A stretch of DNA of 64,000 nucleotides from Roseinatronobacter monicus (lineage in GTDB: Bacteria; Pseudomonadota; Alphaproteobacteria; Rhodobacterales; Rhodobacteraceae): the NCBI RefSeq assembly GCF_006716865.1, contig NZ_VFPT01000001.1, forward strand, positions 987,001 through 1,051,000, read 5' to 3'. The position numbers and the translations under genes are program-made. Below are positions 32,442 through 64,000 of the stretch, piece after piece. The notes below the pieces were generated by a model. It saw only the letters and a program-made list of their open reading frames with translations, was not told the DNA's origin and made no database searches. Within the stretch, counting starts at the first letter, position 1. Every line of letters begins with the position of its first letter.

Positions 32442-33932
32442 GGCTATTTCGCGGTTTGTGTGGGTGGCTTGGTTTCCGTTCATTTGCCTGTGGCACAAGA
32501 TGTTGTGCGGTAGGGTGACGCTGGTAAGTGGGTGAGATTGCCTGCGATGAGGTATGACATGTTGATGAGGTTGCGGGTTTTGCGATACCCGCGCGCCCGA
32601 GCCTTTGCGGCCTGAATGAGGCCGTTGATGGCTTCGACAGCGCCGTTGCTCAGATCGCTGTCAAAACCGTTAAGTATACCATCCCAGTGCGCCTTGAGTG
32701 TCAGAGCGAGTTTCTTGAATGCTGGCAGCCTGCTGCGGCGCGCCCATTGAAACCAGGCGGTAAGCCGTTCTTCGGCCTCTGCCTTGGACTCGGCTTCAGC
32801 AAAGATGTCGCGCAAAGCCTCTTTCAAGCGAAACGCGCGTCCTGTTTTCAGGTGCATCCGAGATAGATCATGATGCTGTGTGATCTGCCGCTTCGTCCAT
32901 CTCTTCTTGTCCTTGAGCCACATCCAGCGGCTGTGTTTCAACTCAGGTCTGCTGCGTACTTCGGCGCGGCGAACCTCTTCAAGCGCCACATTGGCCAGTT
33001 GGATGACATGGAATGGGTCGAAGGTAACATCCGCGTTCGGCAGATGCTTTGCGACGCCAGAAATGTAGGCCCTACTCATATCGATACAGGCAGCGGAGAT
33101 GGCATCGGGATCACCGCCATGGGCGCGCAGATCTTCACCGAAAGCCGCCACAGTCTTTGCATCACGTCCTTCACAGGCAAAGAGAAGCCTGCCGGCCAGA
33201 AGGTCGTGAAATAGGGTGATGTAATTATGCCCGCGGCGCGCAGCTGTCTCGTCAATCCCAAGGGCGGTCACGGCGCTGAAGTCTTCGCGATCTCGCGCTG
33301 ACGACACGTAATGGTCAAGAACCCGCCAGAGGCGATCGTCACCAACATCAAGCATATCAGCAACAGCCTTCACCGGCATCTGTCGCACCAGCGCAATCAC
33401 AAAGGCTTCAAACAACTGACTGAAACCGCTGCCACTGCGCGCCCAGGGGACCGGAACCTGTCCGGTCTTGCTACATTGGCTGCAAGCAACACGTGGCACA
33501 TCGGCATGGATGAAAGCCTTGTGCTCGAAAAAACGCAGGTGTTCCCAGATCCTGGATCGCGTGTCATGGACGGGCTGATCGGGCGCGCCACAGGAGGGAC
33601 AAGCAAATCGACTTCCCGCCTTGAAGCGGACGTCAAAGTGGATCTCTTTGAGTTTGGCGTCAAAACGTACGTCCGTGACACTCCACGGAGCCTGCAGGCC
33701 AAGAGCTGTCGTGAACAAACTTGTCTCGGGACCCATGAATGCCTCCTCATCCGCTGGTTTCAGGAAGCTTCACCCTATCCAAAAAAACTGCCGCAGCTCA
33801 ACAGGCTCGGCGCGTCTGACGCTGCGATATTTGAGGTCTCCGCGACAGACGCGCCTTATGTTGTGACCACAATATCTGGTAGAAGATTCAATCCGCCGCC
33901 CACCAGCAACCCACACAAATCGCGAAGGGACC
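32442..33932 (-). mobile_element. ISL3-family insertion sequence, copy 1
   Basis: 1,491-bp element with imperfect terminal inverted repeats of about 25 bp (left GGCTATTTCGCGGTTTGTG; right end reads GGTCCCTTCGCGATTTGTG on the minus strand). It is flanked by an 8-bp target duplication TTAAAATT (32434-32441 and 33933-33940), the length expected for ISL3. It carries one transposase gene and appears intact. It inserted into AT-rich DNA between hflX and a GGDEF gene. A second copy at 58962-60452 differs by one base that I could see. Confidence 0.95.
32480..33736 (-). CDS. tnpA: ISL3-family transposase (copy 1)
   Basis: 418-residue DDE transposase. An N-terminal zinc ribbon has CPSC and CSQC pairs (FACPSCGAP; RVACSQCSKTG). 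The catalytic core shows ALGIDETAARRGHNY (first Asp), AACIDMSRAYISG (second Asp) and SNGAVEAINGLIQAAKARARG (the Glu, here near the C-terminus), the ISL3/transposase_12 pattern. The start is behind GGAGG with 5-base spacing. The protein is identical in both copies and the frame is undamaged, so it is probably active. Confidence 0.93.
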   Translation of the reverse strand: MGPETSLFTTALGLQAPWSVTDVRFDAKLKEIHFDVRFKAGSRFACPSCGAPDQPVHDTRSRIWEHLRFFEHKAFIHADVPRVACSQCSKTGQVPVPWARSGSGFSQLFEAFVIALVRQMPVKAVADMLDVGDDRLWRVLDHYVSSARDREDFSAVTALGIDETAARRGHNYITLFHDLLAGRLLFACEGRDAKTVAAFGEDLRAHGGDPDAISAACIDMSRAYISGVAKHLPNADVTFDPFHVIQLANVALEEVRRAEVRSRPELKHSRWMWLKDKKRWTKRQITQHHDLSRMHLKTGRAFRLKEALRDIFAEAESKAEAEERLTAWFQWARRSRLPAFKKLALTLKAHWDGILNGFDSDLSNGAVEAINGLIQAAKARARGYRKTRNLINMSYLIAGNLTHLPASPYRTTSCATGK

Positions 33933-51693: not shown

Positions 51694-52551
51694 TCAGGTA
51701 ACTAACCGCGAAAGCTGTGGATCATTGCGCACGACGACACACCACTTCGCAACGGCAGAGAGATCTGCGGATGGATTGGTTAGTTCGCGAATGCGTGAAC
51801 GTACTGAGGTAATCTTCATTTTGGCGGCGGGGTTGTTGCCCTGACTACATCGGCCTCTTGCCTCAACGAAGTCACCGATCAGGAGGTCTACTTTTTGCCA
51901 AACTTTGCGTCGCGCCTCTGCCAAAGGTCCGTGTTCGTTCAACTTAAGTCGGTCTATAGTGATGTAGACTCGTTCCTGCTCCCAAGCTGATGATCCAGGC
52001 GTTGGAATCGCCTTACCTTCTTCATCAAAGGCTATCAACGCCACGTCATCATCATCGATCGGATCCAAAAGATAACGAGACTCTGATTCTTCCTTTGGAG
52101 CAACAAAACTTGAGCACAAAGAACCTGCCTGCAGCGGAAACCAACCTCCCTTCTTACGATTGCCAACGGTACCACAAACCCGAAAATTCATAAAGTTGAA
52201 GGCAAGCCACCAATATCCATCGCGAACCGTACCATCGAGATCCCGTGCTTCCTTCTTCGGACGAAAGTGCTCGACATCGTAATGTGAATAAAGATCACGG
52301 GTCTCAGAGAACCAGCATTTACCACCAGAAAGAGCCAGCATCCAAGGTTTTAGATCCCCCCAGTGCTTGCGATTGGCGTCGATCAATGCGTTACGTGCTT
52401 CCCGATCGCCAGCAGTCTCAAACGCCGCCATATCGTTGAGAAGCTGCGCTGACCTTGCGAGCCAATCATCCCACTGAACTTGTGTCCAAGGCTCCCACCC
52501 CGGAATATCCGTGTCGGTTGGCAATTTATGTTCAAGGTCAATCCAGATCAC
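51694..52551 (-). CDS. ptuB: HNH endonuclease-like protein, Septu PtuB type
   Basis: 285-residue protein. The centre matches the HNH nuclease core of PtuB-type effectors: GGKCWFSETRD (C79), YDVEHFRPKK (H95), then YWWLAFNFMNFRVCGTVGNR (cited to 20) and KKGGWFPL. The two zinc-binding CxxC pairs usual in the family are incomplete here (C79-x2-S82; C126-x2-V129). It starts with GTG, overlapping the ATPase stop (GTGA), so translation depends on the gene before it. With that ATPase it resembles the PtuA/PtuB (Septu) anti-phage pair. Its frame is intact although the ATPase gene is interrupted, so expression is doubtful. Confidence 0.72.
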   Translation of the reverse strand: MIWIDLEHKLPTDTDIPGWEPWTQVQWDDWLARSAQLLNDMAAFETAGDREARNALIDANRKHWGDLKPWMLALSGGKCWFSETRDLYSHYDVEHFRPKKEARDLDGTVRDGYWWLAFNFMNFRVCGTVGNRKKGGWFPLQAGSLCSSFVAPKEESESRYLLDPIDDDDVALIAFDEEGKAIPTPGSSAWEQERVYITIDRLKLNEHGPLAEARRKVWQKVDLLIGDFVEARGRCSQGNNPAAKMKITSVRSRIRELTNPSADLSAVAKWCVVVRNDPQLSRLVT

Positions 52552-53156
52552 TCATTTGCCTCATCGCGTAGGATCTCATTAATTATATCGTCGGCGATCC
52601 GATTTTGCTCGGCTTGCTCCTCGGGTGTCAATGTCGGTTTTCGGAACTTCTGGTGCTGCGCCATCTTGCGAACAAAAAGCGCATAATCGGGATCACGGAA
52701 GTCAGATGTCGAAAAGCCGAGATCAGCGAGCTCCGCGGAAAGCCGAGAGAGTTCAGCATCCTCATCAACACTGCGGGGAGATTTCACAAATAACTCATTT
52801 CTTCTGAAAAGGCGCCGCTCGGTTTCTATATCCAATGTGGATGACAGACCAAAAAGCTCGCTCTTTAGCAGTCCAGTTACTCCCATCCCCTGGGGGTGTT
52901 CGTCGGGTACTTCGACTACGGACCGATTTCCTATGCGCCGGAGGATGTGTACTTGCTCCCTTTTAAGGCTCCCAACCATCATCGGATCATGGGTGGTGAT
53001 CAGAATCTGGGAACCGCCGGAGGTTAGCTTGTCCTGTTCTGCTCCAAGAACCCCTTCAATGTCGTCGAAGTAGCGCAGCTTCCAGATTGGATTGATGTGT
53101 GTGTCTGGCTCGTCAAGCAAGAACAAGCAGTGATCTTCGCGAGTAATGCGCATTAG
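52548..53156 (-). pseudogene. ptuA: 3' part of IS21-interrupted PtuA-like AAA ATPase
   Basis: C-terminal 200 residues of the ATPase whose 5' part is at 55745-56932. It carries Walker B and the D-loop (CLFLLDEPDTHINP; D409-E410 in the reconstructed numbering) and the switch His (ILITTHDP, H450). After these comes a helical region to the end (LRDEANE). The frame runs upstream into the insertion sequence to 53258, but that extra part is IS sequence. Joining MRITRED across one copy of CATTAG restores a continuous frame, so this was a single gene of about 596 codons. Confidence 0.85.
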
Positions 53157-53192
53157 TGTTGAGCGACAACCACCTTGGCCGGTAGCGACAAC

Positions 53193-53262
53193 CATCTTGG
53201 CCGGTGGCGCTGATCGGAGGGCGGGCTTGCCCGCCTGGAGGTCAGCGCCACCGGCCAAGATG
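53193..53262 (+). repeat. Long perfect inverted repeat at the left end of the IS21 element
   Basis: Two 21-base arms (53193-53213 and 53242-53262) are perfectly complementary. The 28-base spacer itself folds (GGCGGGC 53220-53226 / GCCCGCC 53229-53235). The left arm includes the internal terminal-repeat core CTTGGCCGGT. The hairpin is followed by ATTTTGGG and lies just upstream of istA, so it could stop outside transcription from entering the element. Confidence 0.85.
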
Positions 53263-53291
53263 ATTTTGGGTTAGGTGCTGGTCGCTGCGGG

Positions 53292-54842
53292 TTGATAAGC
53301 CGGAAGCCTCTACGTTCCAACGGAGGACCCCGGTTGGCCTATCAATCCATCACCGACCAGCAATTGAGATTATACATGACCGACCTCAAAAATCACAGCC
53401 AATGCACATCAGCCGCCCGTGCCGGGTTCAGCGAAAGAACCGCTCGGCGATTTGATGCAGATCCAACGCCCCCTTCACAGCGCAAGATTGTTCACGGGCG
53501 TACAGTATCCGATCCTCTTGAAGGGTATTGGGAGAATGACATCCTTCCTGTTCTGGAGAACGACAATGCCCTGCAGGCCGTGACGTTGTTGCGTCACCTC
53601 CAGGGTCTACATCCTTTGGCTTTTCCAGATGATCGCATCCGCCGAACCCTGGAGCGAAGGGTCCGGCAGTGGCGCGCGCTTAAAGGCCCGGAGCGCGACA
53701 TCATTTTTCGCCAGACACCAGAGCCAGGCTATATGGCACAGTCCGACTTCACCCATGCAGCCGAGCTGGAAGTGACCATTGCAGGCGCACCATTCCCGCA
53801 CCTGCTTTATCATTTCGCAATGGTCTATAGCCGCTGGGAACATGTTGGTGTTGTCTTGGGCGGGGAGAGTTTTACGGCCTTGGCCGAGAACCTCCAGCAG
53901 GCGTTGTGGGCCTTGGGGGGTGTTCCACAAAACCATCGTACGGATAGTCTTTCAGCCGCATTTCGAAATCTGACGCGTGACGAGTGTGAGGATATTACCA
54001 AGCGCTATGAAGCGTTCGTCGGTCATTATGGTATGGATGCCAGTCGCAACAACCGTGGTGAAGCCCATGAGAATGGCGCCGTGGAATCGCAGAACCGTCA
54101 CTTGAAGAAGGCCATCGCACAGGCACTGATCCTGCGCGGCAGCCGTGATTTTGCATCTGTGGCCGAGTATCGTCGTTTCATTGATATGCTGGTGGCGCGG
54201 CGCAATCGACAGCGTATGGAAGCGGTTGAGGTAGAACAGCTGCATCTTAAACCTTTGCCGCCGCGGCGCACCACAGACTATACGGAAGTTATCGTGCCGG
54301 TCACAAGAATGGGCGGCTTCAGGGTCAAAAGCATCTTTTACAGCGCGCCGTCACAGCTCATCGGGCAGCGTTTGCGCATCCATCTATATGATGACCGCCT
54401 CGACGCATTCTTGGGCAGCACCCTTGTCGCAACGCATCCCCGTGGCCGAGGCCGTAACGATGGCCATCGTGTCCATGTCATCAATTACCACCACGTTATC
54501 CATGCCTTGAAGCGCAAACCACAGGCTCTTTGGAGCTCGATCTACCGCGATAGCCTCTTCCCCCGCACCGAATACGCGCAGGCCTGGGAAGTGCTACAGC
54601 ACAGCCTGCCGCGACGCGACGCCTGCCGCCGCATGGTCGCTCTGCTCTTTATTGCCCACGATCAAGCCTGCGAAGCGGAATTGGCACGTCTTCTTGCTGA
54701 CGATCTCGGCTCTGGTTTGATACCGGACCCAAAGACGCTCGCGACACAGCTCACCCCTAAACACGCGGTGCTGCCAAAGGATGTTGTGGTTTCTCATCCG
54801 TCGCTGGACAGCTTCGATGCGCTGCTGGAGGTACGCGCATGA
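53292..54842 (+). CDS. istA: IS21-family transposase IstA
   Basis: 516-residue transposase. The N-terminal HTH region is NHSQCTSAARAGFSERTARR. The DDE integrase core shows AQSDFTHAAELEV (Asp), NHRTDSLSAAF (Asp) and HENGAVESQNRHLKKAIAQA (Glu). A mu-type C-terminal barrel follows. The start is uncertain: TTG at 53292 gives the full frame, and TTG at 53334 is closer to the usual N-terminus. It overlaps istB by 4 bases (ATGA), the classical IS21 arrangement. No damage is seen. Confidence 0.92.
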   Translation: MISRKPLRSNGGPRLAYQSITDQQLRLYMTDLKNHSQCTSAARAGFSERTARRFDADPTPPSQRKIVHGRTVSDPLEGYWENDILPVLENDNALQAVTLLRHLQGLHPLAFPDDRIRRTLERRVRQWRALKGPERDIIFRQTPEPGYMAQSDFTHAAELEVTIAGAPFPHLLYHFAMVYSRWEHVGVVLGGESFTALAENLQQALWALGGVPQNHRTDSLSAAFRNLTRDECEDITKRYEAFVGHYGMDASRNNRGEAHENGAVESQNRHLKKAIAQALILRGSRDFASVAEYRRFIDMLVARRNRQRMEAVEVEQLHLKPLPPRRTTDYTEVIVPVTRMGGFRVKSIFYSAPSQLIGQRLRIHLYDDRLDAFLGSTLVATHPRGRGRNDGHRVHVINYHHVIHALKRKPQALWSSIYRDSLFPRTEYAQAWEVLQHSLPRRDACRRMVALLFIAHDQACEAELARLLADDLGSGLIPDPKTLATQLTPKHAVLPKDVVVSHPSLDSFDALLEVRA

Positions 54843-55660
54843 CCTCCCGGGAGATCGACATCCACACGCTGCCCAGCATGCTGAGCGCCCTGCGCTTACC
54901 CAGCTTCCACAAGCTATGGCAGGAAATCGCCACACGAGCCGATACCGAAGGCTGGCCGGCTGCGCGCTTCCTGGCCGTGCTGGCCGAATACGAACTCGCC
55001 GAGCGGGACATGCGCCGCATGCGCCGTCATCTGAATGAATCCCAGCTCCCAGCTGGAAAGACTTTGGCAACCTTCGATTTCAAAGCTCTGCCTACCTTAC
55101 CACGCGCCCGGGTCGAAGCTCTGGCTGCGGGAGATTGGTTGGACGGCGGCGCAAACCTGATCGCCATTGGCAACTCCGGCACGGGCAAGACCCACATTCT
55201 CTGTGCCATTGGCCATGCCCTGATCGAAGCAGGCCATAGGGTCTTCTATACCCGGACCAGCGATCTTGTCCAAAGACTGCAAGCCGCACGTCGGGATCTG
55301 GTGCTCGAAGCAGCTTTGGCCAAGCTCGACAAATTTGACCTGATCATCCTTGATGACATTACCTATGCCCACAAGGATCAGGCCGAAACCGGGGTGCTCT
55401 TCGAACTGATTGCCCGGCGATACGAATATCGCAGCATCGCCATCGCGGCCAATCAGCCGTTCAGTGGATGGGATCAAATCTTTCCCGACAAAGCCATGAC
55501 CGTCGCGGCCATCGACCGACTTGTCCACCATGCCAGCATTCTTGAGATGAATGCGCAAAGCTTTCGCCAAAGAAGCGCTGCGGCCAACATGAAAATGCAA
55601 AACGAAGCCTCAGCGACAACCAAAAACGACAACCAAGAAGAAGGAAAAAACCTGACCTAA
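54839..55660 (+). CDS. istB: IS21-family ATPase IstB
   Basis: 273-residue AAA+ helper ATPase of IS21 transposition, related to DnaC/DnaA. Walker A is IGNSGTGKTHIL and Walker B is LIILDDITYAHKDQ; the sensor-like segment IAIAANQPFSGWDQIFPDKA follows. The N-terminal helical part (about 1-90) contacts IstA. The C-terminus is short and polar. Together with istA it should make a functional element. Confidence 0.93.
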   Translation: MTSREIDIHTLPSMLSALRLPSFHKLWQEIATRADTEGWPAARFLAVLAEYELAERDMRRMRRHLNESQLPAGKTLATFDFKALPTLPRARVEALAAGDWLDGGANLIAIGNSGTGKTHILCAIGHALIEAGHRVFYTRTSDLVQRLQAARRDLVLEAALAKLDKFDLIILDDITYAHKDQAETGVLFELIARRYEYRSIAIAANQPFSGWDQIFPDKAMTVAAIDRLVHHASILEMNAQSFRQRSAAANMKMQNEASATTKNDNQEEGKNLT

Positions 55661-55690
55661 AGACAGTAAAAAACACAACCCCGGCGGCCG

Positions 55691-56932
55691 CTATAACCGG
55701 CCAAGGTGGTTGTCGGCACCGGACAAGGTGGTTGACGCGCTACACATTAGTCCAAGCACCGTAAGAATCTGTAACTCACCTTCGGACAGCTGCGTGAAAC
55801 CGACCTTGCCGCCGTGTTCGTCACGCTTTCTGACGGTGATACGCACCTCGTCGATCAGATCTCCGATATACGCGCCCTCAGCGTAGCGAAAGAAACTGTC
55901 AGTACCTCCTACTAGCTCGCCGAGCTGTTTGAGGTTTTTTTGACTGGGGACAAATAGATAGAGTTGCCGCTGCTTTTCCGTTCGGCCACGAAAATCAATC
56001 TGCTTTGTAGCTTCTTGCTCTATAGGGGCCCAGGACACTTGCCATAGCTTGTCGAGGAATTCGCTTACGACATTGCCGCGGGCGTACCAAAATCTTGGAT
56101 CGCCCTCATTCAATTCGTTCTCATCAAACCTACCAGCTCGGCGTTTTTCGCGCAGGCGGTGCGGTTCTTTTAAAACAAAGAGCGCCGACTCTAGCGAATC
56201 GATGTGAAGGTTCTTTAGGACCTTCTCGAAAACTGCGTCGTCTGACAGCAGGCATGCCAGCAGCACGAGCTGGCTGTGACCTCCGCGACAGTAGAACAAA
56301 CGTCGCAGTCGGTCGTCGCCCGTATGTTTTAGCCGCGCCTCGTTCTGGCGCCTGGCTTCCGCAACGGCACGAATATCAGCATCTGTGCCCGTGAAATTCT
56401 CAAGAAGCCTTTCAGAAAGCACCTCGTCGGCTGTGATTTCTTGGCGCTGATTGAAACGGCGCTGGTGTTCTTGGAAAAGCGACTCGATCCGCTCATTCCG
56501 GCCAGAGTAATATGCAAAAACATGCGAGGGTAGCAGACGTGGGCCGCGACGTTCATCGCGCGGCGACTTGTCGGCACGATCATTCGTGAGGAGGTAATCT
56601 TGGCTGACCTTGTCGTCATCCACCCAGACAAATGGGCGTTTCTGCTTGGCAGTGTCAGCTTGAATACGCACCGTGTGACCGCGGATTTCATATTCTAGGG
56701 TGTAGTCAAGAGACGCGTCGCGATTGAGGTCGATGTCACGGAAGATGGTGATCAGCGCCTCGATAAGGTTCGACTTGCCGGTCCCGTTTTGACCGATCAA
56801 AGCGTGACTGCGAATGCGCTTGGGATCAATCTCCGTGGATGCGCCGGGCATCGCAGAAACGTGCGTTTTGAAGTCGATGACCAAATCTTGCAGGTTTCGA
56901 AAATTTGGGATCGCCAAATGGATAAGCTGCAT
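55691..56932 (-). pseudogene. ptuA: 5' part of IS21-interrupted PtuA-like AAA ATPase
   Basis: The gene starts at 56932 (MQLIHLAIPNFRNL), one base after the hsdS stop codon, so it is coupled to hsdS. Residues 1-396 are native: a RecF/SMC-type N-terminal strand pair, Walker A GQNGTGKS (47-54), a helical insertion, and the ABC signature LSEGE (382-386). At 55745 it enters the IS21 element, adding 17 foreign residues to a stop at 55691. Walker B and the switch His are on the other side of the element, so neither fragment can form an ATPase site. The domain order plus the downstream HNH gene suggests PtuA; other OLD-free AAA ATPases of defence systems remain possible. Confidence 0.8.
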
Positions 56933-56933
56933 A

Positions 56934-58859
56934 CTAGGCCCCCGCCGCCTCAGCGGGTTTTTCCAACATTTCAGCCACTGTCGGTTCAGCAATCCAACCG
57001 TGCGCTACCTCAGTTTTGAGTTGCGCATAGAAGGCATCAATTTCACCGCCAAAGCGCTGCCAAAGATCTCTGGCAGGTAGTTCGCCATTGTGGCGGGCAA
57101 GGATTGTTGTCAGTGGTGCCTGTGCAGTGACATCGGGAGTGGTGCCCAATCGAAGCGGAGCAATCAATTCTGTTTGTGGGACTTTCACAGCCGCAGGTCC
57201 TTCTTCTACAAGTGATATGCCGGTTATTGAATTGACGGCAGCTATTACAAATTTTTTGGAGACGTCTAGTTTCTCTTCCAACTGATCTGAGAGCCGTTCG
57301 CACATTTGATGGTATGAACGCAAACTGGGTAGAATTTCAGGCAGCATTTCTATTGGCGGGACTGGAATCAGCACGCTACCAACTTGTTTGAGATTAAGGC
57401 CTGGCTTGTCTCCATAAATGTAACGCGCCAAGAATGCCTGACCGCCGAAAGCGTTTACCATCCAAAAATGAATGAACTCAGATAGTCTGGGGTCCAGTAA
57501 GCGAATTAGGGCGACATGCTGACTAACATAGGCATATTGCGGAAGATCGGGAACGACCGCGCACCTACCCACATTTCCGCCAGTAATCGTGATCAAAAGG
57601 TCCGATGGCTGGACCAATGTACGCATTCCTTCTGCCTTTTCAGGCAATCGTACGAACGCTGGTTTCTCGAAAATGAGCTCATCATGCTTAATATCCTGAG
57701 AGCGTATAAAGGAGTCGCCTTCGTTTGCTATGTACTTTTTCCAACCTCTCGAACCGCTGGTGATGTACTCGGTTAGCTTGGAAAGCGGTTTCCACTCCCA
57801 TCCGTGCGAAAGTGGGCGTAGTTCAGCATCGGCAAAGATTTCTGATTGCCTCATTCGTGACTTTGGGGTCGTAACTCCTCGCAACACGAGATCACACATA
57901 ACATCGCGAAGTTTACGAACGTCCTGCTTTTCGCTGAAAAGGCTGTCAAAGTTGGTTTCTAGTCTTTCCCAACTCTCTTTGAGCCCATATGGATCATGGG
58001 CGTCGGCTACGGCTTGAAGTGTGGAATGACGCAAAGCGTTTTGTAGCCTGCGGCGTGTTTGCTGTTGTCGTTCTAGCTGACTGCATAAATTCATCAGTTC
58101 ATCGACTTTTTCGACGATCCGATTTTGCTCTTCGACAGGAGGGTACGGAATCGCAAGCTCTCGAACGGTGCTAGTATTCAATTCAACCTGTTGAGTTGTT
58201 CCAGATACCAGGGAATCTTGGTGCGATGGTTGAATTCTTGCCTGAACCCAAGGTGATGCGATCACACACCAAACATAACGTGGATTTGCTATCGACGTCA
58301 AACGTATCACTGACACGTGAGAGTCCGCGACCGCCTTATAATCAGGCCTATCTGGATATATTGCCACTCGCCCGGCGGTGCCGGTACCGGTAGAGTTCCA
58401 AAGAAGGTCACCACCTTTTAGGAACCGTTCCTCTCCATAATCGGAAATCGATTCGTCGGCCACATAGCGACTGAGACTATGATCAAATCCCGACCACTGA
58501 ACGCATTTTTGTGAAATTACTTGTACGGAACCATGGTCGGCATATCTCGGACCTTTTCCCCTTTGAATGTATAGTGAAATACCTTCCAGACGCACCCATT
58601 TCCAATGGTCCGGAACCGTATATGGCGCAGCCGTCAATGGGGAGTGTGGTCGCGTCGCTCGAAGTTTCAATTCTGCCGCGTAATGTCGGCACTGATCAGC
58701 CGCAGATTCTAGTGACTCAGGTATAGAAGAATCGGAATTTTCCAGAGTTACTAACCGGCCAGAGATCGCAAGTTGAAGCACCAAATTGCGTAATTTTTCA
58801 ACTCCCCCGGGGGCATTCGCAATGTGCCCAAATTCCGCAAGAAACTGAGACGCTTCCAT
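56934..58859 (-). CDS. hsdS: Type I restriction enzyme specificity subunit HsdS
   Basis: 641-residue DNA-recognition subunit. Two target-recognition domains are visible (about 60-240 and 330-520), each ending in the conserved helix that spaces them: VEEQNRIVEKVDELMNLCSQ after the first and IEMLPEILPSLRSYHQMCER (cited to 20) after the second. The C-terminal 100 residues carry an extra domain (LARHNGELPARDLWQRFGGE). The start overlapped the original hsdM stop (TGATG), a coupling now broken because the ISL3 copy at 58962-60452 lies in between. Transcription may come through the IS, whose transposase gene points the same way. Confidence 0.92.
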   Translation of the reverse strand: MEASQFLAEFGHIANAPGGVEKLRNLVLQLAISGRLVTLENSDSSIPESLESAADQCRHYAAELKLRATRPHSPLTAAPYTVPDHWKWVRLEGISLYIQRGKGPRYADHGSVQVISQKCVQWSGFDHSLSRYVADESISDYGEERFLKGGDLLWNSTGTGTAGRVAIYPDRPDYKAVADSHVSVIRLTSIANPRYVWCVIASPWVQARIQPSHQDSLVSGTTQQVELNTSTVRELAIPYPPVEEQNRIVEKVDELMNLCSQLERQQQTRRRLQNALRHSTLQAVADAHDPYGLKESWERLETNFDSLFSEKQDVRKLRDVMCDLVLRGVTTPKSRMRQSEIFADAELRPLSHGWEWKPLSKLTEYITSGSRGWKKYIANEGDSFIRSQDIKHDELIFEKPAFVRLPEKAEGMRTLVQPSDLLITITGGNVGRCAVVPDLPQYAYVSQHVALIRLLDPRLSEFIHFWMVNAFGGQAFLARYIYGDKPGLNLKQVGSVLIPVPPIEMLPEILPSLRSYHQMCERLSDQLEEKLDVSKKFVIAAVNSITGISLVEEGPAAVKVPQTELIAPLRLGTTPDVTAQAPLTTILARHNGELPARDLWQRFGGEIDAFYAQLKTEVAHGWIAEPTVAEMLEKPAEAAGA

Positions 58860-58961
58860 CAGGCGTCCTCGCTGGCAAAGTGGTGCGCCAATGCTGCCGC
58901 TAGTTCGCTCTTTAAGCGATTTTCGGTTTCTTCGATCTGGCCAAGCAGGGTCTTATATTTA
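58860..58961 (-). pseudogene. hsdM: Detached 3' end of hsdM
   Basis: This 102-base remnant encodes the last residues of HsdM in the frame expected after removing the insertion: KTLLGQIEETENRLKSEL then AAALAHHFASEDA and TGA at 58861-58859, overlapping the hsdS ATG. Joining it to the main hsdM frame through one copy of TATATTTA restores an HsdM of about 591 residues. The amphipathic helix it encodes is the normal C-terminal tail of the protein. Confidence 0.88.
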
Positions 58962-60452
58962 GGCTATTTCGCGGTTTGTGTGGGTGGCTTGGTTTCCGTT
59001 CATTTGCCTGTGGCACAAGATGTTGTGCGGTAGGGTGACGCTGGTAAGTGGGTGAGATTGCCTGCGATGAGGTATGACATGTTGATGAGGTTGCGGGTTT
59101 TGCGATACCCGCGCGCCCGAGCCTTTGCGGCCTGAATGAGGCCGTTGATGGCTTCGACAGCGCCGTTGCTCAGATCGCTGTCAAAACCGTTAAGTATACC
59201 ATCCCAGTGCGCCTTGAGTGTCAGAGCGAGTTTCTTGAATGCTGGCAGCCTGCTGCGGCGCGCCCATTGAAACCAGGCGGTAAGCCGTTCTTCGGCCTCT
59301 GCCTTGGACTCGGCTTCAGCAAAGATGTCGCGCAAAGCCTCTTTCAAGCGAAACGCGCGTCCTGTTTTCAGGTGCATCCGAGATAGATCATGATGCTGTG
59401 TGATCTGCCGCTTCGTCCATCTCTTCTTGTCCTTGAGCCACATCCAGCGGCTGTGTTTCAACTCAGGTCTGCTGCGTACTTCGGCGCGGCGAACCTCTTC
59501 AAGCGCCACATTGGCCAGTTGGATGACATGGAATGGGTCGAAGGTAACATCCGCGTTCGGCAGATGCTTTGCGACGCCAGAAATGTAGGCCCTACTCATA
59601 TCGATACAGGCAGCGGAGATGGCATCGGGATCACCGCCATGGGCGCGCAGATCTTCACCGAAAGCCGCCACAGTCTTTGCATCACGTCCTTCACAGGCAA
59701 AGAGAAGCCTGCCGGCCAGAAGGTCGTGAAATAGGGTGATGTAATTATGCCCGCGGCGCGCAGCTGTCTCGTCAATCCCAAGGGCGGTCACGGCGCTGAA
59801 GTCTTCGCGATCTCGCGCTGACGACACGTAATGGTCAAGAACCCGCCAGAGGCGATCGTCACCAACATCAAGCATATCAGCAACAGCCTTCACCGGCATC
59901 TGTCGCACCAGCGCAATCACAAAGGCTTCAAACAACTGACTGAAACCGCTGCCACTGCGCGCCCAGGGGACCGGAACCTGTCCGGTCTTGCTACATTGGC
60001 TGCAAGCAACACGTGGCACATCGGCATGGATGAAAGCCTTGTGCTCGAAAAAACGCAGGTGTTCCCAGATCCTGGATCGCGTGTCATGGACGGGCTGATC
60101 GGGCGCGCCACAGGAGGGACAAGCAAATCGACTTCCCGCCTTGAAGCGGACGTCAAAGTGGATCTCTTTGAGTTTGGCGTCAAAACGTACGTCCGTGACA
60201 CTCCACGGAGCCTGCAGGCCAAGAGCTGTCGTGAACAAACTTGTCTCGGGACCCATGAATACCTCCTCATCCGCTGGTTTCAGGAAGCTTCACCCTATCC
60301 AAAAAAACTGCCGCAGCTCAACAGGCTCGGCGCGTCTGACGCTGCGATATTTGAGGTCTCCGCGACAGACGCGCCTTATGTTGTGACCACAATATCTGGT
60401 AGAAGATTCAATCCGCCGCCCACCAGCAACCCACACAAATCGCGAAGGGACC
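58962..60452 (-). mobile_element. ISL3-family insertion sequence, copy 2 (in hsdM)
   Basis: 1,491-bp element, same ends as copy 1 and flanked by its own 8-bp target duplication TATATTTA (58954-58961 and 60453-60460). It lies near the 3' end of hsdM with the transposase gene in the same direction as the restriction operon. The only difference from copy 1 that I found is A at 60261 versus G at 33741, in the spacer between the transposase RBS and start codon. Confidence 0.96.
59000..60256 (-). CDS. tnpA: ISL3-family transposase (copy 2)
   Basis: 418-residue DDE transposase with the same translated sequence as the copy at 32480-33736, including the zinc-ribbon cysteines and all three catalytic acidic residues. 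The upstream spacer reads TATTC instead of CATTC after GGAGG. Because it is codirectional with hsdM and hsdS, its promoter or read-through across it may now supply hsdS transcription. Confidence 0.93.
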   Translation of the reverse strand: MGPETSLFTTALGLQAPWSVTDVRFDAKLKEIHFDVRFKAGSRFACPSCGAPDQPVHDTRSRIWEHLRFFEHKAFIHADVPRVACSQCSKTGQVPVPWARSGSGFSQLFEAFVIALVRQMPVKAVADMLDVGDDRLWRVLDHYVSSARDREDFSAVTALGIDETAARRGHNYITLFHDLLAGRLLFACEGRDAKTVAAFGEDLRAHGGDPDAISAACIDMSRAYISGVAKHLPNADVTFDPFHVIQLANVALEEVRRAEVRSRPELKHSRWMWLKDKKRWTKRQITQHHDLSRMHLKTGRAFRLKEALRDIFAEAESKAEAEERLTAWFQWARRSRLPAFKKLALTLKAHWDGILNGFDSDLSNGAVEAINGLIQAAKARARGYRKTRNLINMSYLIAGNLTHLPASPYRTTSCATGK

Positions 60453-62133
60453 TATATTTAACTAGTAGTAGGTCTGGATCATGAATTTCTTCCTCCGGAC
60501 CGTTGGGGTGGGTCTCATCAAGGTTGAAGATAGGCCAGTAAATTCGGTCGCCCGCAGCTTGAGCATCACTTGACTGCAGGCGCAATTCCTCTGCTTGGGC
60601 GCGCAGAATGTCCATCTGATCCTCAACCGGCTTTCGCTGCAGATCACCGCTTACCCCTTTGATCGACTCACGCAGGTCACGCACTCGGTTTTCTAGCGCC
60701 TTGGCGTCATTGTTCAGTGTGTCGGCGCGATCCCAGTGTGGTCTTGCACCAGCTTCTGCTTGCTCACGCTTAGTCTTGAAGTCGACCTTCCAAGCGAATT
60801 CGTTTGGCTCTCGGTCAGCGAAATCATTCGACTCCTTGCCCCACCAGTCCTGTAGGGGTTTGAACTCTTCAAACCGGATCGGTTTGGTCTTGCTGTAGCT
60901 CTTGTAGCCAGGCGGGTATGGGTGCTCGTAGAACCAGATGGTGTCGGTATGGAAGTGTTCGGTACCATCATCATTGACTTCACCTTTGGTGAAAAACAAA
61001 AGGTTCGTCTTGATGGTTGTGTAGGGTGCGAACACGCCTTTTGGCAGGCGCACAATTGTGTGCAGGTTGCAGTCACGGAGCAACAGCTGCTTTAGAGTGC
61101 CCTTGAGGCCATCGCCAAACAGAAAACCATCAGGCAGCACGACCGCGGCGCGCCCGTTTTCCTTCAACAGTTTCTTGATGATAAGAGCCATGAACATATC
61201 GGCCGTCTCGCGCGTGCGAAGATCCGCTGGATAATCGCTGCCCACGCCGTCATCTTCATACCCACCAAAGGGCGGATTGGTGATCACGCAATCCACTTTG
61301 TCGTGGGCGCTCCAATCGTTCCAGCCTTTTCCCAAGGTGTTGCGGTGTTCGATCTGGCTAGGTACATCAATGCCATGCAACAGCATGTTGGTTGTGCACA
61401 GCAGGTGAGGCAGCTGCTTCTTCTCAATGCCACGGATCAGGGTTTCGATGGCGCGCTGGTCTTCCGCACTGGACTTGGCGGAAAGCTGGTTGCGGAAATG
61501 ATCGATCGCAGCAGTCAGGAAGCCGCCAGTCCCGCAAGCAGGGTCTAGCACGGTTTCGCGTTTGGCAAGGCTAGGGTTGAGGCGATCAGCCATGAATTGA
61601 GTGAGGGCGCGCGGGGTGTAGAATTCCCCCGCATTCCCGGCACCGCGCAGGTCGTTCAGAAGCTGTTCGTAGACGTCGCCCAAGTTTGCCCGGGTCTTGA
61701 AGTCATGGAAGTCTATCGCCTCTTCCAGCTTTTCGATAACAGCAAGCAATTGCGTGCCGGATTTCATGTAGTTGTTGGCATCTTCGAAAACGCTGCGGAT
61801 CACCATATGCTGTGGGCTGGCGTTTGCATCGAGTTCTTTCAACGAAGCAAAAAGCTCGTTGTTCACGAACCCTACAATATCGCTTGGTGCGATCTGAGGT
61901 TTTCTCTTCCCGTCATCCCCGGGCAAATAGGCGGCCCAATTTCGCCACCGCATAGGCTCTGGCAATGGAGACTTGTACGTATTGTTGTCGTCTTCCCACT
62001 CCTCTTCCCGCTGGTCGAAGACCTTTAGGAAGAGCATCCACGTAAGCTGACCAAGGCGTTGGGCGTCGCCGTCGACGCCGTCGTCCTTGCGCATAATGTC
62101 CTGAATGGATTTGATGGAGTTGCTGAGGTTCAT
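60376..62133 (-). CDS. hsdM: Type I DNA methyltransferase HsdM with IS-encoded C-terminus
   Basis: N6-adenine methyltransferase subunit. The N-terminal helical domain (about 1-165) precedes the catalytic domain with FYTPRALTQFM, SAM motif DPACGTGG (197-204) and catalytic NPPF (286-289). Residues 1-560 are native. Then the frame enters the ISL3 copy and adds 25 foreign residues (RSLRDLCGLLVGG...) before TAA, in place of the native 31-residue tail found at 58860-58961. The active site is intact, but the lost tail normally contributes to contacts with HsdS, so activity is uncertain. It starts 35 bases after the hsdR stop. Confidence 0.9.
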   Translation of the reverse strand: MNLSNSIKSIQDIMRKDDGVDGDAQRLGQLTWMLFLKVFDQREEEWEDDNNTYKSPLPEPMRWRNWAAYLPGDDGKRKPQIAPSDIVGFVNNELFASLKELDANASPQHMVIRSVFEDANNYMKSGTQLLAVIEKLEEAIDFHDFKTRANLGDVYEQLLNDLRGAGNAGEFYTPRALTQFMADRLNPSLAKRETVLDPACGTGGFLTAAIDHFRNQLSAKSSAEDQRAIETLIRGIEKKQLPHLLCTTNMLLHGIDVPSQIEHRNTLGKGWNDWSAHDKVDCVITNPPFGGYEDDGVGSDYPADLRTRETADMFMALIIKKLLKENGRAAVVLPDGFLFGDGLKGTLKQLLLRDCNLHTIVRLPKGVFAPYTTIKTNLLFFTKGEVNDDGTEHFHTDTIWFYEHPYPPGYKSYSKTKPIRFEEFKPLQDWWGKESNDFADREPNEFAWKVDFKTKREQAEAGARPHWDRADTLNNDAKALENRVRDLRESIKGVSGDLQRKPVEDQMDILRAQAEELRLQSSDAQAAGDRIYWPIFNLDETHPNGPEEEIHDPDLLLVKYRSLRDLCGLLVGGGLNLLPDIVVTT

Positions 62134-62168
62134 GTGCTCTTCTTATTCCTATTGGCCCGCAAAGCGGT

Positions 62169-64000
62169 TCAGGCCTGTCTTTGTTCATCGTTCTCGTAAA
62201 GTGCCTTCTCAAGCGACCTTACCGCCTCAGCGTAATCCTCGACGCTGCCGAAAATCCCGCGCCGGATTTGGGTCTTACTTCCGAATTGGTCGAACGGTGG
62301 GAGTTCAAGCACCTTCGCGTCTTCGATATCCTGGACACCATGGTCGGCAAATTTGTCGAGCAAAGCTTCCAGCACAGCGCGGGCTTGTTCTCCGTACTTT
62401 CCAAACACATCTCGTTTCCGGACGTTTTCGGCCCGCTCGCGGCGCGTCAACGGCTTCTGATCGAAGGCGACGTGAGCAACGAGATCAAACGCGTCAAGTT
62501 TCACCCCATTGGGCACAGCCTGTTGGAGGATCTCCAGCGGCACACCCTGACTCGTCAACAATTCGAGGACCGCTTGCTTTCGATCTGCACTATTCCAGCG
62601 CCGCAGGAATTCGGTCAGGCTACCAAATTCGTCTTGAAGCGACTTTTTGATGCTGTCCTTAAGTAAAACACGGTAGTCCTCGGTGATCAGTTTTCCGTTA
62701 GCATCAAGATATTGAGAACGTTCAACTGCAACGCGGACCTCTACATCGTCGATGAAATATTTTACGCGTCCTGGCCCAGTTCCACCACCGATTTCAACAC
62801 CGGCCGGTCGGCCGTCGCCATCTGTTGTCTTGATCTGAGATGCTGGCAGATCTTGTTCACCGCCAACTTGTGGATTTTGGTCGTCCGGGGGAACGACAGA
62901 TTCACCGGGTTTCGGCTCGTAAATAACAACAGGATCGCCATCGAACTCCGGATCTGCGAACAGACGCGTTGCCCCTTTGAAATCCATAATGGTGAAGTAG
63001 AGCTTCTGATAGTCCTCACGCAAACGGGTGCCCCGACCGATTATCTGCTTGAACTCGGACATCGAATTGATTGTTTGATCGAGCACGATTAATTTACAGG
63101 TCTTCGCGTCTACCCCTGTTGTCAGAAGTTTAGAAGTAGTTGCAATAACTGGATAAGGTTCGTCGTTATCGATGAAGTAGGATAGCTGGGCCTTGCCCTC
63201 GGTATCATCTCCTGTGATGCGCATCACATACCGACGATTTCTCGCAGCAGCGGGTATGATTTTTACCAGTTCTTGCCGCATTCGTTCAGCATGGTCTTGG
63301 TCGTCGCAGAAGATAATGGTCTTCGCCATTGGGTCGGTGGCTTTCAAGTACTCCCAAGCCTTCATGGCAACTAATCGAGTGCGCTTTTCTAGAACAAGGC
63401 CTCGGTCGAAGTCTTTCGAATTGTACTGTCGCTGCTCCACCGGCTGCCCCAGTTTGTCCAGTTTTCCTGTTTCAGGCGTGTAACCCAACGCATCGACATC
63501 GGTGGCAATGCGAATGACCTTGTAAGGTGCCAGGAAGCCGTCCTCGATCCCTTGCTTTAAAGAGTAAGTGTAAACTGGTTCGCCAAAATAATTGAAATTG
63601 CTTATTTCTTTTGTTTCTCTCGGTGTCGCGGTTAGGCCTAGGTGCGTTGCGTTGCCGAAGTAATCGAGAACCTCCCGCCAGGCAGAGTCGTCCGCTGCGC
63701 TGCCCCGATGGCATTCGTCGACAACGACAAGATCGAAAAAATCTGACGGGAACTGTCGATAGATTTGCTTCCATTGCTCGCGGCCGGTCACTGCTTGATA
63801 AAGCGCCAGATAAATTTCATAGTTTTTCTTGACTTCACGATTGGTGACCTTGTGCATGACTTCGCCAAACGGTGCGAAGTCCTGCTGCATAGTCTGATCT
63901 ACTAGAATGTTTCGATCCGCCAGGAACAGTATCCGCTTCTTTGCTTTAGCCTTCCAAAGACGCCAAATAATCTGGAAAGCTGTATAGGTCTTTCCTGTGC
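62169..64000 (-). CDS. hsdR: Type I restriction endonuclease subunit HsdR (5' end outside window)
   Basis: C-terminal part of the restriction/translocase subunit, EcoEI type. The frame is open to the window edge: the last bases encode TGKTYTAFQIIWRLWKAK, part of Walker A, so the N-terminal nuclease domain lies outside. Visible are motif II VVVDECHRGS, motif III LGLTATPRET, IIFCDDQDHAERM, and motif VI KQIIGRGTRLREDY, followed by the EcoEI_R_C-like helical domain to the end (YENDEQRQA). It is the first gene of hsdRMS-ATPase-HNH. No frameshift or stop is seen in the visible part. Confidence 0.93.
   Translation of the reverse strand, partial: TGKTYTAFQIIWRLWKAKAKKRILFLADRNILVDQTMQQDFAPFGEVMHKVTNREVKKNYEIYLALYQAVTGREQWKQIYRQFPSDFFDLVVVDECHRGSAADDSAWREVLDYFGNATHLGLTATPRETKEISNFNYFGEPVYTYSLKQGIEDGFLAPYKVIRIATDVDALGYTPETGKLDKLGQPVEQRQYNSKDFDRGLVLEKRTRLVAMKAWEYLKATDPMAKTIIFCDDQDHAERMRQELVKIIPAAARNRRYVMRITGDDTEGKAQLSYFIDNDEPYPVIATTSKLLTTGVDAKTCKLIVLDQTINSMSEFKQIIGRGTRLREDYQKLYFTIMDFKGATRLFADPEFDGDPVVIYEPKPGESVVPPDDQNPQVGGEQDLPASQIKTTDGDGRPAGVEIGGGTGPGRVKYFIDDVEVRVAVERSQYLDANGKLITEDYRVLLKDSIKKSLQDEFGSLTEFLRRWNSADRKQAVLELLTSQGVPLEILQQAVPNGVKLDAFDLVAHVAFDQKPLTRRERAENVRKRDVFGKYGEQARAVLEALLDKFADHGVQDIEDAKVLELPPFDQFGSKTQIRRGIFGSVEDYAEAVRSLEKALYENDEQRQA

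What the first reader, a model, noticed from the sequence alone, without database searches (positions are those of the whole stretch)
51694..64000. Type I restriction-modification operon with a Septu-like ATPase/HNH pair built into it
Five minus-strand genes follow each other tightly: hsdR, 35 bases, hsdM, TGATG overlap (reconstructed), hsdS, 1 base, AAA ATPase, GTGA overlap, HNH protein. The last two have the domain content of PtuA (SMC-like ATPase with Walker A, signature, Walker B, switch His) and PtuB (HNH with DVEHFRPK core). Such tight spacing suggests that the pair is a fixed part of the operon rather than a neighbour. A possible logic is that the ATPase senses DNA altered or cut by the type I enzyme, or a phage inhibitor of it, and then releases the HNH nuclease; that mechanism is speculation.
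Basis: partly seen in the sequence, partly recalled or inferred. Interest (0 to 1): 0.8.

Follow-up and report, generated by a model that had tools for sequence, protein, structure and literature searches.

The report
Septu pair built into restriction operon
A bacterial DNA-restriction operon carries a second antiviral enzyme pair as a fixed part, and in many distant relatives that pair is there while the usual DNA-cutting subunit is not, which suggests a restriction system with a swapped-in weapon; the copy in this genome is itself broken by two jumping elements.

Summary
On the minus strand lie hsdR, hsdM, hsdS, an SMC/ABC-type ATPase and an HNH protein, spaced as stated. Two genes carry complete insertion elements with target duplications: hsdM an ISL3, the ATPase gene an IS21. 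The system is almost certainly inactive here. The last two proteins match PADLOC's Septu PtuA1 and PtuB1 models over their whole length (ATPase pieces searched apart). In relatives the pair is a fixed part of type I operons: all 20 readable loci of 21 from genome contigs have hsdS-ptuA-ptuB in that order. With one E. coli locus added, 18 of 21 have 1-2 bases between hsdS and ptuA, and 20 of 21 a 4-base ptuA/ptuB overlap. Sixteen loci of more distant Septu PtuB relatives showed no hsd gene by the queries used. On a tree of 43 ATPases hsd linkage changes once. The unexpected result: 11 of 13 loci of more distant hsd-linked PtuAB have no detectable hsdR, and in two genomes checked whole none was detected. 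I therefore favour HsdMS as self/non-self sensor and PtuAB as an effector that can accompany or replace HsdR (mechanism inferred, about even odds), over a PrrC-like guard or mere co-location.

The parts
62169..64000 (-). hsdR, EcoAI/EcoEI-type restriction subunit, 609 residues inside the window, continues beyond it
   Evidence: NCBIfam NF046051 856.9 bits (cut-off 550); open frame of 822 aa in the genome
60453..62133 (-). hsdM, N-terminal piece of the interrupted methyltransferase gene
   Evidence: N6_Mtase 218 bits, HsdM_N 46.4 bits; PADLOC MTase_I 956.4 bits. The queried stretch began at 60376, so its last 25 or so residues are read out of the insertion element
58962..60452 (.). ISL3-family insertion element inside hsdM (transposase gene 59000-60256, minus strand)
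   Evidence: ISL3 transposase 343.1 bits; ends and 8-base target duplication TATATTTA; 17 full copies in genome
58859..58961 (-). hsdM, C-terminal piece, ending in the TGATG overlap with hsdS
   Evidence: the same -1 junction in L002, L007, L009, L015, L022 and L053
56934..58859 (-). hsdS, specificity subunit, 641 aa
   Evidence: Methylase_S 54 bits; PADLOC Specificity_I 476.3 bits, 1-640 of 641
55745..56932 (-). ptuA, N-terminal piece of the interrupted ATPase gene (Walker A and LSEGE signature)
   Evidence: PADLOC PtuA1 PDLC00293 398.9 bits over profile 1-330. The queried stretch 55739-56932 holds 6 bases of the element
53157..55744 (.). IS21-family insertion element inside ptuA (istA 53292-54842, istB 54839-55660, plus strand)
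   Evidence: IS21 transposase 199.2 bits, IstB 266.2 bits; ends and 6-base duplication CATTAG; 9 full copies
52548..53156 (-). ptuA, C-terminal piece (Walker B FLLDEPD, TTHDP switch)
   Evidence: PADLOC PtuA1 PDLC00293 263.9 bits over profile 329-526. The queried stretch 52548-53168 holds 12 bases of the element
51694..52551 (-). ptuB, HNH protein, 285 aa, uninterrupted
   Evidence: PADLOC PtuB1 PDLC00343 341 bits over 1-284; no Pfam family at E<=0.1

Best explanation
The locus is a type I restriction-modification operon whose last two genes are a Septu ATPase/HNH pair inherited as part of the system. My preferred mechanism: the HsdM2S methyltransferase marks the host's own sites and recognises unmarked invading DNA; instead of, or beside, HsdR, it engages or licenses PtuA, whose ATP cycle activates the PtuB nuclease. 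PtuB then cuts DNA or, as in characterised Septu and retron PtuAB, tRNA. Shown by sequence: gene identities, fixed order and junctions, joint inheritance, and recurrent absence of detectable hsdR. Inferred: physical coupling, the trigger, and the target. In this genome the copy is almost certainly dead, because insertion elements break hsdM and ptuA.
For: PtuA and PtuB profiles cover both proteins. All 20 readable loci of 21 in genome contigs have hsdS-ptuA-ptuB; junctions conserved. In the 398-genome phylum sample, 3 of 3 PtuB matches above 200 bits lie beside PtuA and hsdM, while the 16 loci holding the 18 weaker matches show no hsd gene by the queries used. In a second sample (family of G249), 4 of 4 PtuA matches at E<=1e-50 have an hsdM within 4 kb. 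E. coli, 5426 genomes: the hsdM places covering at least 80% of the two query genes number 3 and 10, and all 13 have ptuA beside them. Linkage changes once on the ATPase tree. Among 12 loci with full-length HsdR, distances of HsdR, HsdM, PtuA and PtuB correlate pairwise (r 0.49-0.69, p<=0.0054). hsdR was not detected in 11 of 13 loci of the more distant hsd-linked group, nor anywhere in G051 and G319 by HSDR_N or an HsdR query. The HsdM NPPF motif is present in 34 of 34 HsdM sequences or fragments examined, so methylation is probably retained.
Against: No activity, methylome or complex was measured. Loss of hsdR is a common harmless decay of type I systems (general knowledge), so its absence need not mean replacement. 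hsdR could act in trans: the L014 genome has an EcoAI-type HsdR frame elsewhere, and the E. coli chromosomes (not held) and the plasmid hosts' chromosomes were not searched. HSDR_N scores EcoAI-type controls only 27-30 bits (cut-off 25.1). G051 and G319 each have two ResIII matches, 46-64 bits, that I did not follow up; six HsdR-like frames in the control records score 126-153 bits, but one further frame that has HSDR_N scores only 64.7. Two of 13 distant loci keep hsdR or pieces of it (L116, L118), and 15 of 19 window-clade loci keep it as one frame. A close hsd relative lacks ptuAB (L076, HsdM 81% identical), so HsdMS does not need PtuAB. The conserved HsdS tail, a candidate docking site, is about as conserved in L076. 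In the more distant group HsdM and PtuB distances do not correlate (r 0.13, p 0.27). The correlations have no housekeeping-gene control. Both structure models were poor and were not used.
Confidence: 0.5

Rival explanations
1. PtuAB is a guard of the type I enzyme, working like PrrC with EcoprrI: it is held silent by the Hsd complex and fires (tRNA or DNA cleavage, abortive infection) when a phage protein inhibits that complex.
For: PrrC lies inside a type I locus and is unleashed when T4 Stp inhibits EcoPrrI; it is an anticodon nuclease (review PMC12707154, passages). Septu EcB88 and retron-Eco7 PtuAB deplete or cleave tRNA-Tyr (PMC13096335 section 8; PMC11555353 passages). DarTG2 sits between hsdS and hsdR in EPEC (PMC12255303 passages).
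Against: In 11 of 13 more distant loci no hsdR was detected that could be guarded, although HsdMS alone could still be the guarded object. No PrrC family was reported for either ATPase piece by Pfam.
Confidence: 0.3
2. Co-location without functional coupling: hsd operons are landing places for defence genes, and ptuAB is simply carried and expressed there.
For: Other defence genes use such places: a YhcG/DUF1016-type nuclease between hsdM and hsdS in 10 of the 21 genome-contig loci, DarTG2 in EPEC. Most hsdM of the wider family have no such pair: 2 of 70 places with E<=1e-60 lie beside the PtuB of this clade in the phylum sample.
Against: One change of linkage on the ATPase tree; conserved 1-2 base and 4-base junctions; joint inheritance; pair kept where hsdR is lost; contrast with 0 of 16 loci of the other Septu.
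Confidence: 0.17
3. The arrangement in this window is a chance product of insertion elements or assembly.
For: Two insertion elements lie in the operon, and both are present in many copies.
Against: Each element is flanked by its own target duplication, and uninterrupted relatives show the same gene order.
Confidence: 0.02

Closest known systems
Septu type I (PtuA/PtuB, PADLOC models PDLC00293/PDLC00302 and PDLC00343/PDLC00330)
   Same: ATPase and HNH gene in the same order with a short overlap; full-length profile matches; profile matches to solved PtuA and PtuB chains
   Different: Characterised Septu is described as a two-gene system (PMC13096335, passages); here the pair is bound to hsdM and hsdS
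Septu type II / type I-A retron (Ec78, Ec83)
   Same: A PtuAB effector pair put under the control of another module
   Different: The partner is a type I methyltransferase and specificity subunit; the NCBIfam retron PtuA/PtuB cut-offs are not reached
TIGR04435 'restriction system-associated AAA family ATPase' with its partner gene
   Same: SMC-like ATPase plus HNH-like partner directly after hsdS in hsdRMS operons (L059, L061, L066). The family's name shows that NCBI's curators had noticed a restriction link
   Different: A separate branch of the ATPase tree with a different partner family; the window pieces score 56 and 54.3 bits against a cut-off of 300
EcoprrI-PrrC
   Same: Nuclease encoded inside a type I operon (review passages); its ABC-type ATPase domain is recalled
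   Different: PrrC is one protein with an anticodon nuclease domain (recalled); here the nuclease is a separate HNH protein, and hsdR is often absent
MADS (methylation-associated defence system)
   Same: Methyltransferase, HsdS-like subunit and AAA ATPase in one system (NCBIfam names)
   Different: MAD2, MAD3 and MAD5 profiles match far below their cut-offs (88.5/720, 12.2/420, 43.1/400 bits); the full MADS gene set is recalled and was not sought

Membership tests
Septu (type I) | PtuA: ABC/SMC-type ATPase with Walker A, signature, Walker B and switch His | tested here: met
   PtuA1 profile 398.9 + 263.9 bits on the two pieces; motifs in uninterrupted relatives. The window gene itself is interrupted
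Septu (type I) | PtuB: HNH nuclease encoded directly after ptuA | tested here: met
   PtuB1 341 bits; H95 and N122 invariant in 16 aligned sequences
Septu (type I) | Protection against phages | not testable with these tools
   -
Septu (type I) | PtuA/PtuB oligomer | tested here: inconclusive
   Only sequence-profile matches to solved PtuA/PtuB chains; own models too poor
Septu type II / retron I-A | Reverse transcriptase gene before ptuA; retron PtuA/PtuB cut-offs | tested here: not met
   The gene before ptuA is hsdS; PtuB 42.2 of 150 bits, PtuA 13.8 of 500 bits on the C-terminal piece. No separate search for a reverse transcriptase was made
Type I restriction-modification system (EcoAI/EcoEI type) | hsdR, hsdM and hsdS genes | tested here: met
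   hsdM interrupted, so activity in this genome is not expected
TIGR04435 restriction-associated AAA | Score of 300 bits | tested here: inconclusive
   56 and 54.3 bits on the pieces; the full-length distant relative L056 scores 132.6. No full-length member of the window's own clade was scanned against NCBIfam
PrrC / RloC | Anticodon nuclease domain fused to the ATPase | tested here: not met
   No such family among the Pfam or NCBIfam matches of either piece
MADS | MAD2/MAD3/MAD5 cut-offs | tested here: not met
   Scores far below the cut-offs

The most novel reading that the evidence does not exclude
HsdMS-PtuAB is a restriction-modification type of its own: a type I methyltransferase and specificity complex that uses a Septu ATPase/HNH pair in place of the HsdR motor nuclease, with the five-gene hsdRMS-ptuAB form (this window) as its sister state carrying both effectors. 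Septu would then be a methylation-steered effector in this clade.
Probability: 0.4. Interest if true: 0.85.

Novelty: new variant of a known kind. Interest (0 to 1): 0.62.

Why it matters
As far as I know, what triggers Septu is not settled. A Septu clade bound to HsdMS offers a concrete candidate: recognition of unmethylated DNA. If PtuAB can stand in for HsdR, type I systems have a second way to restrict, and annotation pipelines that score restriction-modification and Septu separately would probably report these loci as a broken restriction system plus an unrelated Septu. The E. coli four-gene loci make this testable in a laboratory strain.

Tried and rejected
HsdS C-terminal tail as a PtuA docking site: rejected as Septu-specific, because the tail is about as conserved (78.8%) in the ptuAB-less L076.

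HsdR evolving independently of the other genes: a first Mantel run suggested it, but that run included broken HsdR rows. With 12 full-length HsdR the correlation is there, so I dropped the claim.

Structure comparison: the models of PtuB (mean pLDDT 62.9, residues 77-165 with the HNH centre below 50) and of L002 PtuA (49.1) were too weak.

Phage and viral collections: no PtuB relative in phages or viral contigs. L121 shows only an hsdM fragment of the more distant type on an E. coli plasmid. Prevalence with PDLC00293 at E<=1e-60 in a sample centred on G199: 1 of 369 genomes, at a contig end where hsd linkage cannot be read (L119).

Rows left out of counts: L021 (ptuB only from residue 90, near a contig end), L119 (contig end), L005, L010, L012 and L013 for hsdM/hsdR counts (short flanks), L128 (apparently the genome of L002), L054-L055 and L122-L127 (near-copies of other E. 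coli loci; counted only in the genome tallies). L057, L062 and L118 PtuA and the interrupted window PtuA are not in the tree; L128-L131 were fetched after it. In the tree L019 and L020 were labelled as having hsdR although it is broken there, and only 7 of the 43 rows are free of hsd. L058 and L131 have a PtuA-like ATPase without a recognised PtuB and are not counted among the 13 distant PtuAB loci. The junction script takes the start codon nearest to the preceding stop, which favours short gaps; for L056 and L057 (strand turned in the script) it gave no usable hsdS/ptuA value, so they are not in the 21. One window-clade locus with an open hsdR, L008, has a broken hsdS, and in L007 only residues 1-361 of the window HsdR are matched within its 826 aa frame.
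Full report
What is in the window. The window lies at G000:C1:987001-1051000 of a 4.7 Mb genome in 6 contigs. Minus-strand genes: hsdR (62169 to beyond the window end), hsdM, hsdS (56934-58859), ptuA and ptuB (51694-52551). Two genes are interrupted: hsdM by an ISL3 element at 58962-60452 with the duplication TATATTTA, ptuA by an IS21 element at 53157-55744 with CATTAG. The genome holds 17 and 9 full-length copies of these elements, 98-100% identical, these two included. The system is therefore almost certainly not working here, and the breaks look recent. I restored neither gene.

Identity. HsdR is of the EcoAI type (856.9 bits, cut-off 550). The pieces of the ATPase match PADLOC PtuA1 (PDLC00293) over profile 1-330 and 329-526 with 398.9 and 263.9 bits, and the HNH protein matches PtuB1 (PDLC00343) over 1-284 with 341 bits. 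NCBIfam's retron PtuB and TIGR02646 match below their cut-offs, and so does TIGR04435, 'restriction system-associated AAA family ATPase'. Profiles of the wider clade reach solved PtuB chains (best E 5.8e-08) and PtuA chains (6e-13 for 8ee4), among other ABC-type ATPases such as AriA and Rad50.

Is the pair a fixed part of the operon? A scan of genome contigs with PtuB gave 21 loci. All 20 that can be read have hsdS-ptuA-ptuB in that order; the 21st holds only part of ptuB. Most titles name beta- or gammaproteobacteria (classes recalled), such as Pandoraea, Methylomonas, Hahella, Klebsiella and Stutzerimonas; the 21st is a Sulfitobacter. Taking those 20 and one E. coli locus, 18 of 21 have 1 or 2 bases between hsdS and ptuA, and 20 of 21 have the 4-base ptuA/ptuB overlap (the script takes the start nearest to the preceding stop). 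In a phylum sample of 398 genomes, PtuB matches at E<=1e-8 occur at 21 places in 17 genomes. The 3 above 200 bits all lie beside PtuA and hsdM. The other 18 places, in 16 loci, show no hsd gene by blastp with my query set. Five of these 16 stretches are at most 10.5 kb long (L062, L102, L103, L104, L106), and L103-L106 gave no match at all to my queries at the cut used. In a second sample (family of G249), 4 of 205 genomes have PtuA at E<=1e-50 and all 4 have hsdM within 4 kb. One of these appears to be the genome of L002; another, G869 (L131), has no PtuB recognised. All 6 plasmid records with PtuA at E<=1e-20 have hsdS beside it. The reverse does not hold for the wider family: of 70 hsdM places at E<=1e-60 in the phylum sample, 2 lie beside this PtuB (G000, G319), and the closest one, G316/L076, with an HsdM 81% identical to the window's, has none. 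Within E. coli, however, hsdM places that cover at least 80% of the two query genes are always with ptuA: 3 of 3 and 10 of 10, in 13 of 5426 genomes.

Tree and joint inheritance. On a tree of 43 ATPases (35 hsd-linked, 7 free, 1 unlabelled), hsd-linked versus free changes once and hsdR presence changes five times (several long branches, bootstrap not settled, L019 and L020 labelled as hsdR-bearing). Across 12 loci with full-length HsdR, pairwise distances of HsdR, HsdM, PtuA and PtuB correlate (r 0.49-0.69, p<=0.0054), while HsdS, whose target domains shuffle (general knowledge), correlates weakly or not at all. Across 17 loci HsdM and PtuA give r 0.70, p 0.0008. In 10 loci of the distant group HsdM and PtuA give r 0.49, p 0.048, and HsdM and PtuB r 0.13, p 0.27. 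No housekeeping gene was used as a control.

The unexpected part: hsdR is optional. In the window's clade, 19 loci (window included) show the hsdR region. Fifteen have one open hsdR frame (one cut by a contig end, one by the window end) and four do not: L014, L019, L020 and E. coli L053. In those four, hsdM, ptuA and ptuB remain open; hsdS is open over nearly its whole length, with an unclear start in L019 and L020. Against this, L008 keeps hsdR and has a broken hsdS. In the more distant hsd-linked PtuAB I count 13 loci: L056, L057, L109-L118 and L130. In eleven no hsdR was detected; L116 has one and L118, which is decayed, has pieces. A frame-independent tblastn with all HsdR queries on the hsdR-less loci found only the remnants in L053 and L014. 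HSDR_N and an HsdR query found nothing in G051 and G319 (rated 100% complete, in about 60 and 110 contigs), nor on plasmids NZ_CP045722, NZ_CP012741, NZ_CP032092 and NZ_CP061181, while the positive controls rang. ResIII, a general helicase family, gave two matches each in G051 and G319 and one on NZ_CP032092 (46-64 bits), which I did not follow up. G319's own ptuA is broken by one stop. All 10 E. coli genomes of this type are annotated hsdM-hsdS-AAA ATPase-hypothetical or HNH protein, with no hsdR in the stretches shown, 6.5-9 kb either side of the ptuA match. The methyltransferase motif NPPF is present in all 34 HsdM sequences or fragments examined.

How it probably works. HsdMS still looks able to methylate and recognise sites. 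PtuAB needs both ATPase and HNH motifs in Septu EcB88 (PMC13096335, passages), where phage infection triggers cleavage of the tRNA-Tyr variable loop (section 8). PMC11555353 (passages) cites another Septu as targeting nicked DNA; that original paper is not held. I infer that HsdMS supplies self/non-self discrimination and PtuAB the effector, beside HsdR in the five-gene form and instead of it in the four-gene form. The guard model (PrrC-like) is the main rival. Simple decay of hsdR with a passively linked Septu is the plain alternative.

Known or new. Eight literature searches, in the open PubMed Central subset and some with capped listings, showed no paper describing Septu as part of hsd operons or HsdMS-PtuAB without hsdR; of the listed papers I saw passages or sections of six. 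The PADLOC paper (passages) describes Septu type I, type II (retron) and a frequent Hma neighbour. The name of TIGR04435 shows that a sister ATPase was already seen near restriction systems. I call it a new variant of a known kind.

Noticed in passing
L059:5490-11432, L061:6129-12245, L066:7998-15349: A sister arrangement: hsdR-hsdM-hsdS followed by a TIGR04435-type ATPase and an HNH-like partner (weak PDC-M01B/PDC-M62B and PtuB matches), with 1-14 base overlaps.
   Followed up: partly
L058:8574-11198; L131:6099-7970: hsdRMS operons with a 615-623 aa PtuA-like ATPase and no PtuB gene recognised.
   Followed up: no
L003:5406-6455, L008:4012-5061, L016:5156-6205 and seven more loci: A YhcG/DUF1016-type PD-(D/E)XK nuclease gene sits between hsdM and hsdS in 10 of the 21 genome-contig loci (three of them only about 35% identical to the query, one a fragment); none was seen in the window's operon.
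   Followed up: partly
L109:5586-11284, L117:7245-13035: Gene order hsdS-ptuA-ptuB-hsdM, with the methyltransferase gene last and no hsdR detected.
   Followed up: partly
window 32442-33932: A second copy of the same ISL3 element; 17 full-length copies in the genome.
   Followed up: yes
G000:C1:1118026-1124012 (outside the window): A further type I system with its own hsdM and hsdR about 70 kb away; the genome has four HSDR_N matches in all.
   Followed up: no
L053:3383-6612: Two DUF262 genes upstream of the E. coli hsdM-hsdS-ptuA-ptuB locus, on a stretch with an integrase beside guaA.
   Followed up: no
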